A stretch of DNA of 64,000 bases, taken from an uncultured Clostridia bacterium. GTDB taxonomy: Bacteria > Bacillota > Clostridia > Christensenellales > Borkfalkiaceae. The stretch covers positions 62,001 to 126,000 of the forward strand of contig CALVXB010000003.1 in NCBI GenBank assembly GCA_944368775.1, in the 5' to 3' direction. Of this stretch, positions 34,181-36,128 are shown piece after piece. The notes under the pieces are model-generated. The model had not been told where the DNA came from. It saw only the letters and a program-made list of their open reading frames with translations, and did not search any database. Each line of letters begins with the position of its first letter. The stretch's first letter is position 1. The position numbers were made by a program, and so were the translations under genes.

Positions 34181-34438
34181 ATGATCGTCGAAATCACGAT
34201 AAAGACAAAAGATGGCGGCGTCATCAAATACAATAGTCAGGCGGCGGCGATCCGCAGGGCGCGGGAGGAGGCCGGAATATCGCAGGCGGAAGCGGCGAGC
34301 AGGGTCGGCATCAAGGTGCAGGCGTGGCAGCAGTACGAATACGGCACGCGCACGCCGAAAGATTCGATGCTTGAAAAAATCACAGTCGCCCTCGGCACGG
34401 ACATCAGCGTGCTGACGACTTTTTCAGGAAAAGTATAA
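34181..34438 (+). CDS. XRE-family helix-turn-helix regulator
   Basis: An 85-residue protein. A short beta N-terminus (MIVEITIKTKDGGVIKYN) is followed by a Cro/C1-type HTH with AAIRRAREEAGISQAEAASR and VGIKVQAWQQYEYGTRTP. GAAAGGAG lies 8-15 bp before the ATG. It is a small DNA-binding protein of the type found on mobile elements or as an antitoxin; no toxin-like partner is evident on the same strand. A bidirectional terminator follows at 34442. Confidence 0.85.
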   Translation: MIVEITIKTKDGGVIKYNSQAAAIRRAREEAGISQAEAASRVGIKVQAWQQYEYGTRTPKDSMLEKITVALGTDISVLTTFSGKV

Positions 34439-34590: not shown

Positions 34591-34884
34591 TCAAAGTTTT
34601 TTGAAGGAGTTTTGCGCGCGGCAAACGTCGGCATCGACGGCGATCAAAGACGTGAACCCGTTTGGATATTCATTTGCGCGGAGATCTTGCATCGCAGAGG
34701 GGGTGGGTAGTGGTTGATGCGCATTGAGCATATCAAAAATGGTTCCGATCAAGTAATCGGCGGCCATGTCTATGGCGTCGGCAAGGTCGTTTCCGTATGT
34801 TGCGCCGCCAAAATCAGGGAAGATCACAGAATAGCGGCCGTCTTCTTCGGGATAGAAACAAGCGGGATAGATATATTTTTTCAT
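34591..34884 (-). CDS. HicB-like antitoxin domain protein, truncated
   Basis: A 97-residue protein with the HicB fold signature YSVIFPDFGGATYGNDLADA followed by IDMAADYL. Full HicB antitoxins continue after the SLI-VD motif with a ribbon-helix-helix or HTH DNA-binding domain; here the protein stops 15 residues after SLIAVDAD. No HicA-type dsRNA-binding toxin gene lies within several kb. It is either an orphan remnant or a free-standing partial antitoxin. It has its own promoter at 34907-34936 and AGGTAA as a weak ribosome site. Confidence 0.8.
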   Translation of the reverse strand: MKKYIYPACFYPEEDGRYSVIFPDFGGATYGNDLADAIDMAADYLIGTIFDMLNAHQPLPTPSAMQDLRANEYPNGFTSLIAVDADVCRAQNSFKKL

Positions 34885-35309: not shown

Positions 35310-35422
35310 AAAAAAGGAACCCTTGCCACGCCGTCGGGTGAACAAGCCCCCAACAATACGCCCAAAGCGAACCGTGGTACAGATTCCACTAATATTTTAT
35401 CCCAAAACGAGGGATCTGTCAA
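35310..35422 (-). ncRNA. Small RNA cassette 4 (promoter, hairpin, terminator)
   Basis: On the minus strand: TTGACA (35417-35422), 17-bp spacer, TAAAAT (35394-35399), predicted start near 35387. GGAATCTGTACCACG (35373-35387) pairs imperfectly with CGTGGCAAGGGTTCC (35316-35330), followed by six T (35310-35315). The loop contains GGTTCGCTTTGGGCG. The predicted RNA is about 78 nt. It has no ORF with a ribosome site. Confidence 0.65.
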
Positions 35423-35451
35423 CCCTTTTCGCAAAAAATTTTCGGTGAACA

Positions 35452-35548
35452 AGAAAAAGAGGCGACTCAACTAAACAAGTCAAAGCCTGAGGGTGTTGAG
35501 TCACCTCTTTCCGAATAATAATATACACCAAAGCGCGAGAAATGTCAA
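35452..35548 (-). ncRNA. Small RNA cassette 3
   Basis: Minus strand: TTGACA (35543-35548), 17-bp spacer, TATATT (35520-35525), start near 35512. AAAGAGGTGACTCAAC (35495-35510) pairs over 16 positions with GTTGAGTCGCCTCTTT (35456-35471; one G-U), followed by a T run. The predicted RNA is about 60 nt and is essentially one long hairpin with a 23-nt loop. Confidence 0.68.
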
Positions 35549-35550
35549 CT

Positions 35551-35661
35551 AAAAAAAGACACCTCTACCGCACAAACAGCTGGAACCGCCAAAGGCAGTA
35601 GCTCTGCATCGAATAGGGATGTCTTCATTAACAATATACACCCAAAAGAGAGAATCGTCAA
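35551..35661 (-). ncRNA. Small RNA cassette 2
   Basis: Minus strand: TTGACG (35656-35661), 17-bp spacer, TATATT (35633-35638), start near 35626. AAGACATCCCTA (35614-35625) pairs with TAGAGGTGTCTT (35556-35567; one mismatch, one G-U), followed by seven T. The loop holds an inner GCCTTTGGC hairpin. The predicted RNA is about 75 nt. An AT-rich, UP-element-like stretch lies upstream of the -35 box. Confidence 0.68.
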
Positions 35662-35695
35662 CCGTTCTGCGAAAAATTTTCGCGCAATTTGGCAT

Positions 35696-35919
35696 AAAAA
35701 AAGATTCTGCCAAGGCGAACCCATCAGAGACACCTTTGATGCAGCGGAATCTTTCAAAGATCCCGCCAAGGCGAACTCAAAAGAGACACCTCAGAAGCAG
35801 CGGAATCTTCAAAGATCCCGCCAAGGCGAACTCAAAAGAGACACCTTTGATAGGGCAGAATCTTTTATGGAAACTTTTATTTCCAATACTATAATACACC
35901 AAAAAGAGGGAGCTGTCAA
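35696..35919 (-). ncRNA. Small RNA cassette 1 with three tandem hairpin units
   Basis: Minus strand: TTGACA (35914-35919), 17-bp spacer, TATTAT (35891-35896), start near 35884. The RNA of about 190 nt carries three tandem 54-56 nt units (35811-35865, 35756-35809, 35700-35754). Each folds by AAAGATTCxGC with GCGGGATCTTT-type strands and an inner hairpin with loop TGTCT. The last unit ends in GCAGAATC and a T run and doubles as the terminator. Each unit also contains GTTCGCCTTGGCGG. No ribosome site is seen. Confidence 0.7.
35700..35865 (-). repeat. Three tandem 54-56 bp repeats within sRNA cassette 1
   Basis: Shared core on the minus strand: AGGTGTCTC, then GAGTTCGCCTTGGCGGGATC (the last unit varies: GATGGGTTCGCCTTGGCAGAATC). 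Variation falls in positions that preserve pairing. Confidence 0.85.
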
Positions 35920-36128
35920 CCATAAATCGCAAAAAAATAAAAGATTTTCTCTCCCCGAGACCGACAGCACGGGCGAGACGCTCTCTGCGGAGCAGAGGGA
36001 GTTCTTCAAAGACAGCAAAGCCGCAGGCGGAGGGTGGGCGCTATCGGGTGCCGTTCGCCCGCCGCAGCGTCGCGATGTGTGACGCCGCCCGTGCGCCCGC
36101 GGCCGCGGCGAAAAGTCGGGCAAAGTAT

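What the first reader, a model, noticed from the sequence alone, without database searches (positions are those of the whole stretch)
35310..35919. Tandem array of four small-RNA cassettes, each with its own promoter and terminator
On the minus strand, four units follow one another head to tail within 610 bp. Each has a near-consensus sigma-70 promoter with an exact 17-bp spacer (TTGACA/TTGACA/TTGACA/TTGACG with TATTAT, TATATT, TATATT, TAAAAT). Each predicted RNA is about 60-190 nt, folds into a long hairpin and ends in a T run, with no ribosome site. The spacer between -35 and -10 is itself conserved (about TCCCTC-TTTTGGTGTA), which is unusual and suggests cassette duplication or an operator. 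Cassettes 1, 2 and 4 share a loop motif near GTTCGCCTTGGCGG. Cassette 1 holds three tandem hairpin units whose variants keep pairing. I know of no family with this layout; it could be a regulatory or RNA-sponge array, type III antitoxin-like RNAs without a visible toxin, or a small multiplying element.
Basis: partly seen in the sequence, partly recalled or inferred. Interest (0 to 1): 0.9.

Follow-up and report, generated by a model that had tools for sequence, protein, structure and literature searches.

The report
Orphan array of phage antisense RNAs
Four small RNA genes sit in a row in a gut Clostridia chromosome and turn out to be left over from a phage 'polyvalent' effector gene, whose living relatives carry one such antisense RNA gene at the end of each of several effector domains; this looks like a new way to pair a phage toxin domain with an RNA partner, possibly its antidote.

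Summary
In detail: four head-to-tail RNA genes on the minus strand (35919-35310), each with a 17-bp-spaced sigma-70 promoter, a hairpin RNA and a T-run. Cassette 4 has covarying homologues, and similar arrays with other unit numbers occur in related Clostridia. The decisive finding lies outside the window. In intact phage 'polyvalent' effector genes, an RNA gene of the same build sits antisense at the 3' end of MuF_C (BECR-fold) and LPD3 domains. In 56 kb of such genes a promoter+hairpin+T-run rule finds 22 RNA genes antisense, all with a 17-bp spacer, against 1 sense; 124 kb of unrelated phage DNA gives 0. Synonymous-codon randomisation shows that promoter and fold exceed what the protein demands. 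Fresh loci obeyed in 5 of 6 cases (the sixth just missed). One gene holds four such RNAs next to an ART-PolyVal domain; the window holds an ART-PolyVal-like start fragment followed by four RNAs and no domain bodies. So the window is an orphan, decayed or domesticated copy: protein frame broken, promoters and hairpins intact. Rfam has no match. Best guess for function: RNA antidotes to the linked effector domains (inferred, not shown). Rivals: cis-antisense control, trans-acting sRNAs, relics.

The parts
35891..35919 (-). promoter 1, TTGACA-17-TATTAT
35696..35884 (-). RNA 1 (cassette 1): three tandem hairpin units inside one long closing stem, T-run 35702-35696
   Evidence: sequence; fold -88.9 kcal/mol, z -11.2
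35633..35661 (-). promoter 2, TTGACG-17-TATATT
35551..35626 (-). RNA 2 (cassette 2), T-run 35557-35551
   Evidence: z -3.7
35520..35548 (-). promoter 3, TTGACA-17-TATATT
35453..35513 (-). RNA 3 (cassette 3): long perfect closing stem that doubles as terminator. Close homologue with its own promoter in L019; weaker similarity to the LPD3-linked RNA of L132 (z 3.9)
   Evidence: (z -5.7)
35394..35422 (-). promoter 4, TTGACA-17-TAAAAT
35310..35387 (-). RNA 4 (cassette 4, type A): four-helix RNA, homologous and covarying with array RNAs in G013, G224, G237, G256, G141, G021; T-run 35316-35310
35915..36022 (+). remnant of the parent gene: ...VNHKSQKNKRFSLPETDSTGETLSAEQREFFKDSKA, like the start of an ART-PolyVal domain; frame broken downstream and throughout the array
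   Evidence: compare L097 and L049 proteins. By itself the fragment has no Pfam match

Best explanation
The four cassettes are RNA genes that once lay antisense inside a phage or mobile-element polyvalent effector gene. In intact relatives many MuF_C and LPD3 domains are closed by one such RNA gene. Its promoter lies in the linker just after the domain (the antisense of protein motifs like 'SISQNSENVN'). Its 65-80 nt RNA runs back over the last codons of the domain and ends there in a T-run. Loss of the domain bodies, plus duplication, left a bare RNA array next to an ART-like fragment. Shown here by sequence: RNA genes, antisense placement, domain linkage, selection beyond the protein, orphan state. 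Inferred: each RNA is a constitutively made partner, most likely an inhibitor (antidote), of the domain it is encoded against. It would protect a lysogen from its own effector, and as an orphan array protect a host from the injected effectors of related phages, as orphan immunity genes do.
For: Covariation: 90.2% of cells paired (70.1% in shuffles), 50 cells with both sides changed (16.6 in shuffles), slid partners only 41-48% paired. Antisense RNA genes in intact genes: 22 antisense, all 17-bp spacer, against 1 sense in 56 kb of coding DNA; 0 in 124 kb of unrelated phage contigs. Elsewhere in 7 of these genes only 1 of 194 blocks has an antisense promoter of 11/12 or better, against 7 of 7 at MuF_C ends. 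Synonymous randomisation: promoter P below 0.05 in nearly all distinct antisense loci tested (exceptions L117, L109, L136), typically 0.001-0.025; fold z -1.3 to -5.7 in all but the type B RNA of L049. Domains before the RNAs: MuF_C or LPD3 in most cases. Fresh loci obeying the rule: L130, L131, L132, L133, L135; L136 just missed it. Invariant synonymous codons, including one over an unpaired bulge: Gln CAA 19/19, Leu CTG 17/17. Layout parallel: L076 has ART-PolyVal next to four RNAs. An orphan-array RNA is homologous to an LPD3-linked RNA of the same genome, z 7.4. MuF-C is described as a BECR-fold RNase or RNA-binding domain of injected phage proteins (PMC5512222).
Against: No transcript, binding or toxicity data. 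The antidote role is an analogy. MuF_C relatives in an E. coli and a Pasteurella phage have no good antisense promoter, L095 has none and L136 is borderline. Domain segments of L133 that carry RNAs have no Pfam match, so the linkage may be wider than MuF_C/LPD3. Homology of window cassettes 1 and 2 to domain-linked RNAs is not established. Model R2 does not recognise most domain-linked RNAs. LPD3 has no known activity, and the structure predictions of LPD3 and MuF_C were too poor to use.
Confidence: 0.45

Rival explanations
1. Cis-antisense control: each RNA pairs with, or transcriptionally interferes with, its own polyvalent mRNA at a domain boundary, keeping the effector silent in the lysogen. 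Orphan arrays would act in trans on incoming phage mRNA or be relics.
For: The RNAs are by position fully complementary to the 3' end of each domain's coding sequence. Promoters are near consensus.
Against: Selection acts on folded structure and on synonymous sites at an unpaired bulge across different genes, which plain complementarity does not need. Orphan arrays persist in genomes with no detectable MuF_C or LPD3. A protein that arrives pre-made in the virion could not be stopped this way.
Confidence: 0.22
2. Trans-acting regulatory sRNAs of phage origin that control host or phage mRNAs by base pairing and were domesticated as an array.
For: Strong promoters, stable short RNAs, orphan arrays kept as bare RNA genes.
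Against: Domain-by-domain linkage is unexplained. I did not search for targets.
Confidence: 0.13
3. RNA cofactor or cargo: the RNA is bound by the RNase-like domain, packaged or injected with it, and needed for its activity or specificity.
For: MuF-C of phage Mu is predicted to be an inactive, RNA-binding BECR domain (PMC5512222).
Against: Orphan arrays without the protein have no role under this view.
Confidence: 0.08
4. Neutral relic: the window array is a recent fragment of a dead prophage gene with no present function.
For: The gene remnant beside it is broken and other remnants are common. The same-genus cassette in L018 has a weaker promoter (sequence).
Against: All four promoters and hairpins are intact although frames are broken. 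Orphan RNAs (L107, L098, L099, L108) also keep 10-12/12 promoters. Covariation is seen among array RNAs that are mostly orphans, although some of it may have arisen while still in phages.
Confidence: 0.1
5. Artefact of protein coding: the promoters and hairpins are chance by-products of a repetitive linker on the other strand.
For: The opposite strand is an open frame in intact relatives.
Against: Synonymous randomisation, 22 antisense to 1 sense, compensatory changes, and tandem copies out of frame with each other (spacings 113, 142, 121, 145, 146, 196 bp).
Confidence: 0.02

Closest known systems
Type III toxin-antitoxin systems (ToxIN, CptIN, TenpIN): structured RNA antitoxin bound by an endoRNase toxin
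   Same: Short structured RNA from a strong promoter, tied genetically to a (predicted) RNase-fold domain, sometimes in tandem copies.
   Different: Here the RNA is antisense within the domain's own coding sequence, one per domain of a multi-domain protein, with its own terminator; the domains are MuF_C and LPD3, not ToxN-like. Binding is untested. (Features of type III systems are from general knowledge.)
Type I toxin-antitoxin and cis-antisense RNAs (e.g. RalR/RalA, hok/sok)
   Same: An RNA gene antisense to a toxin-like gene.
   Different: Repeated at successive domain ends of one giant gene; structure and synonymous sites conserved across genes; orphan arrays without the gene.
Orphan immunity-gene arrays of polymorphic toxins; MuF polymorphic toxins (PMC5576092)
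   Same: Modular toxin domains, each with a small linked gene; orphan arrays of the small genes on chromosomes.
   Different: The small genes are RNA, not protein. PMC5576092 proposes small immunity ORFs downstream; I saw no mention of RNA immunity in the passages found.
Rfam small RNAs and riboswitches
   Same: Size and terminator-like stem.
   Different: No Rfam family reaches threshold for the window array or for 18 related loci apart from tRNAs and one neighbouring 6S RNA.

Membership tests
Type III toxin-antitoxin | structured RNA with its own promoter | tested here: met
   (sequence evidence only; no expression data)
Type III toxin-antitoxin | toxin ORF directly downstream on the same strand, of the ToxN/CptN/TenpN fold | tested here: not met
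   The linked domains are on the opposite strand and are MuF_C/LPD3; nothing of the kind in the window
Type III toxin-antitoxin | RNA binds and inhibits the RNase | not testable with these tools
   needs biochemistry
Type I / cis-antisense toxin-antitoxin | RNA gene antisense to the toxin gene | tested here: met
   in intact relatives; in the window only a gene remnant is left
Type I / cis-antisense toxin-antitoxin | RNA represses toxin mRNA | not testable with these tools
   needs expression data
Any Rfam RNA family | covariance-model score above the gathering threshold | tested here: not met
Polyvalent-protein antisense RNAs (group defined here) | TTGACA-17-TATAxT promoter + hairpin + T-run antisense at the 3' end of a MuF_C/LPD3 domain | tested here: inconclusive
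   Met in the intact relatives. In the window, RNA build, antisense frame remnants and the ART-like neighbour fit, but the domain bodies are gone
Orphan immunity arrays | tandem cognate small genes without the toxin in the genome | tested here: met
   Own genome has no MuF_C, ART-PolyVal or LPD3 match (the LPD3 search had no positive control genome in that call). The protective function is not tested

The most novel reading that the evidence does not exclude
Phage polyvalent effector proteins carry, for each RNase-like domain, a dedicated RNA antidote encoded antisense at the end of that domain. Bacteria keep cut-out arrays of these RNAs as an RNA 'poly-immunity' locus against effectors injected by related phages.
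Probability: 0.35. Interest if true: 0.97.

Novelty: categorically new. Interest (0 to 1): 0.9.

Why it matters
It exposes a layer of RNA genes, unrecorded as far as I could find, inside the giant effector genes of gut phages and conjugative elements: one antisense RNA per domain, recognisable from the protein motif 'SIS(Q/K)xxxxVN' that its promoter imposes on the linker. How cells and prophages survive multi-toxin polyvalent proteins, whose internal domains leave no room for a downstream immunity gene, is open; this offers a directly testable answer. It also explains orphan small-RNA arrays on Clostridia chromosomes and shows dense dual coding under selection on both strands.

Tried and rejected
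Rfam at gathering and lax thresholds: nothing credible. Exact-pattern scans of viral contigs for types A and B: type A hits were chance matches, type B none. A scan for the type D core gave 2 true contigs among 12. tblastn of the first MuF_C against public phages and plasmids: no match; a second MuF_C type found E. coli, Pasteurella and other records that lack a good antisense promoter in the ones checked. AlphaFold models of LPD3 and MuF_C were low confidence, so no fold search was run. A link of cassette 1 to the third RNA of L076 was suggested by the opposite-strand peptide (TPLIG) but the RNA alignment is not convincing (z 2.1). Weak R1/R3 hits (e.g. L050, L051, L064, L110, L111, L118, L119) lie in ordinary genes or terminators and were set aside. 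The promoter-spacer 'operator' idea was dropped because the spacer sequence is not kept between genomes.

Full report
What is in the window. On the minus strand between 35919 and 35310 there are four RNA genes in tandem, each with a promoter of 10-11 of 12 consensus letters and a 17-bp spacer, a folded RNA and a T-run. Cassette 1 contains three tandem units inside one long closing stem (-88.9 kcal/mol, z -11.2). There is one copy in the genome (1.78 Mb, 22 contigs) and no Rfam match.

Homologous arrays. A blastn search of same-family genomes found cassette 4 in G237, G224 and G013 and cassette 3 in G240. A covariance model of cassette 4 (R1) added G256, G141 and G021. Several of these loci are arrays too: G237 has three cassettes, G256 a double unit plus two more, G021 and G141 two to three, with TTGA-type promoters. 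Over 11 sequences the four-helix structure shows 90.2% paired cells against 70.1% in shuffles, and 50 cells with both sides changed against 16.6; slid versions pair 41-48%. The alignment was fitted to the model, so the cell percentage is favoured, but the compensatory changes are many.

The opposite strand. In G021 and others the strand opposite the array is an open or broken reading frame that leads into '[KR][FY][SA]LP[ED]TDS...', the start of an ART-PolyVal-like domain. In the window the same fragment is present just upstream of promoter 1 on the plus strand, and the frame is broken elsewhere. A second RNA type (D), found next to cassette-4-type RNAs, led to two viral contigs, L076 and L077, in which the RNA lies antisense inside an intact gene of about 4000 codons.

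The rule. Type D sits at the 3' end of a MuF_C domain (PF18819). Of four further MuF_C genes in the family all have an antisense promoter and RNA at the domain end, as do 11 of 12 relatives from IMG/VR and GTDB contigs, which include some duplicates of one another (L095 is the exception). The L076 gene carries four such RNAs: after three MuF_C domains and one LPD3 domain (PF18798), next to an ART-PolyVal domain. L089 and L094 carry one after MuF_C and one after LPD3. I then tested fresh loci: a public faecal phage contig (L130), two LPD3 loci (L131, L132), and IMG/VR relatives of another MuF_C type (L133, L135, L136). Five of six have an antisense RNA gene at the domain end; L136 has one just under the threshold (9/12 promoter). 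L133 has five in 3.5 kb and L135 three. In 12 intact genes (56 kb) the rule gives 22 antisense hits, all with a 17-bp spacer although 16-18 were allowed, and one sense hit. Unrelated viral contigs (124 kb) give none. The threshold of the rule was chosen after seeing the first loci, so the fresh loci and the sense-strand and unrelated-contig controls are what carry the weight.

Selection beyond the protein. With the protein held fixed and codons drawn from each gene's own usage, the antisense promoter score is reached with P below 0.05 in nearly all distinct loci tested, mostly 0.001-0.025; the exceptions are L117, L109 (which uses a 16-bp spacer) and L136. The RNA folds better than recoded versions in all but one (z -1.3 to -5.7; the type B RNA of L049 is the exception). 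In type D, 19 sequences show the same codon at many sites against background usage: Gln CAA 19/19, Leu CTG 17/17 (background 8%), and Asn as AAT at one site but AAC at another. One of these sites lies in an unpaired bulge. Tandem copies in arrays are often out of frame with each other (113, 142, 121, 145, 146, 196 bp between promoters), so the duplicated unit is the RNA gene, not the peptide.

Orphans. Thirteen genomes of the family (own included) carry convincing RNAs. MuF_C is detected in two of them (G034, G144) and LPD3 in two of the eleven tested (G100, G141). The own genome has no MuF_C, ART-PolyVal or LPD3 match. In L098, L099, L100 and L108 the sequence like the gene is confined to the RNA unit and its close flanks, or the frame is broken within it, while promoter and hairpin remain. 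In G141 an RNA of the orphan array is homologous to the RNA linked to that genome's LPD3 domain (z 7.4), and window cassette 3 resembles both more weakly. The window's order (ART-like fragment, then four RNAs) matches the L076 order (ART, then RNAs of LPD3 and three MuF_C) with the domain bodies removed. Cassettes 1 and 2 are not tied to a named domain.

Mechanism. MuF-C is described as a member of the phage BECR endoRNase group carried by proteins thought to be injected (PMC5512222), and MuF toxins are thought to need immunity factors (PMC5576092). An internal toxin domain of a multi-domain protein has no place for a downstream immunity gene, so an antisense RNA gene that travels with the domain is an economical solution. 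Conserved unpaired and synonymous positions favour recognition of the RNA as a molecule over simple complementarity. This supports, but does not show, an RNA antidote. Steps shown: RNA genes (by sequence), antisense domain linkage, selection, orphan arrays. Steps inferred: transcription, binding, inhibition, immunity. It works like an RNA antitoxin at best; it is not filed as a type III system because that system's defining gene order was tested and not met.

Limits. No expression data; MAG and viral-contig sequences; a modest sample; Pfam assigns no domain to several RNA-bearing segments of L133; the feature was not seen in the E. coli or Pasteurella MuF_C genes checked. The host is an uncultured gut-type Clostridia; several relatives are named only so in their records.

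Noticed in passing
window 34591-34884 (-) and 34181-34438 (+): A HicB-like antitoxin (Pfam E 1.7e-9) and a small HTH_3 protein lie downstream of the array; a HicA partner was not looked for.
   Followed up: no
L048 1298-1600 and 1713-1915: The RNA array of G141 lies directly next to the 6S RNA gene (Rfam RF00013, 59.8 bits).
   Followed up: no
L085 and L086: ArdC/MPTase polyvalent genes of conjugative-element type carry a 12/12 antisense promoter and a different hairpin RNA ('type E') at the MuF_C end, so the feature is not confined to phage-type genes.
   Followed up: partly
L133 3.5 kb stretch: Domain segments of about 220-240 aa without any Pfam match are each closed by an antisense RNA gene; they may be unrecognised effector domains.
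   Followed up: no
L123 (Escherichia phage PhiR5_2) 1501-1935: A giant gene of an E. coli phage holds a MuF_C-like domain with a terminator-like antisense hairpin but only a poor antisense promoter.
   Followed up: partly
L019 about 1500-1600: A close homologue of window cassette 3 stands alone, with its own promoter, between two unrelated host genes in G240.
   Followed up: partly
window 33769 (+), 34115 (-), 48157 (+): Other promoter + strong hairpin + T-rich candidates from the rule; they look like ordinary promoters or terminators or unexamined small transcripts.
   Followed up: no
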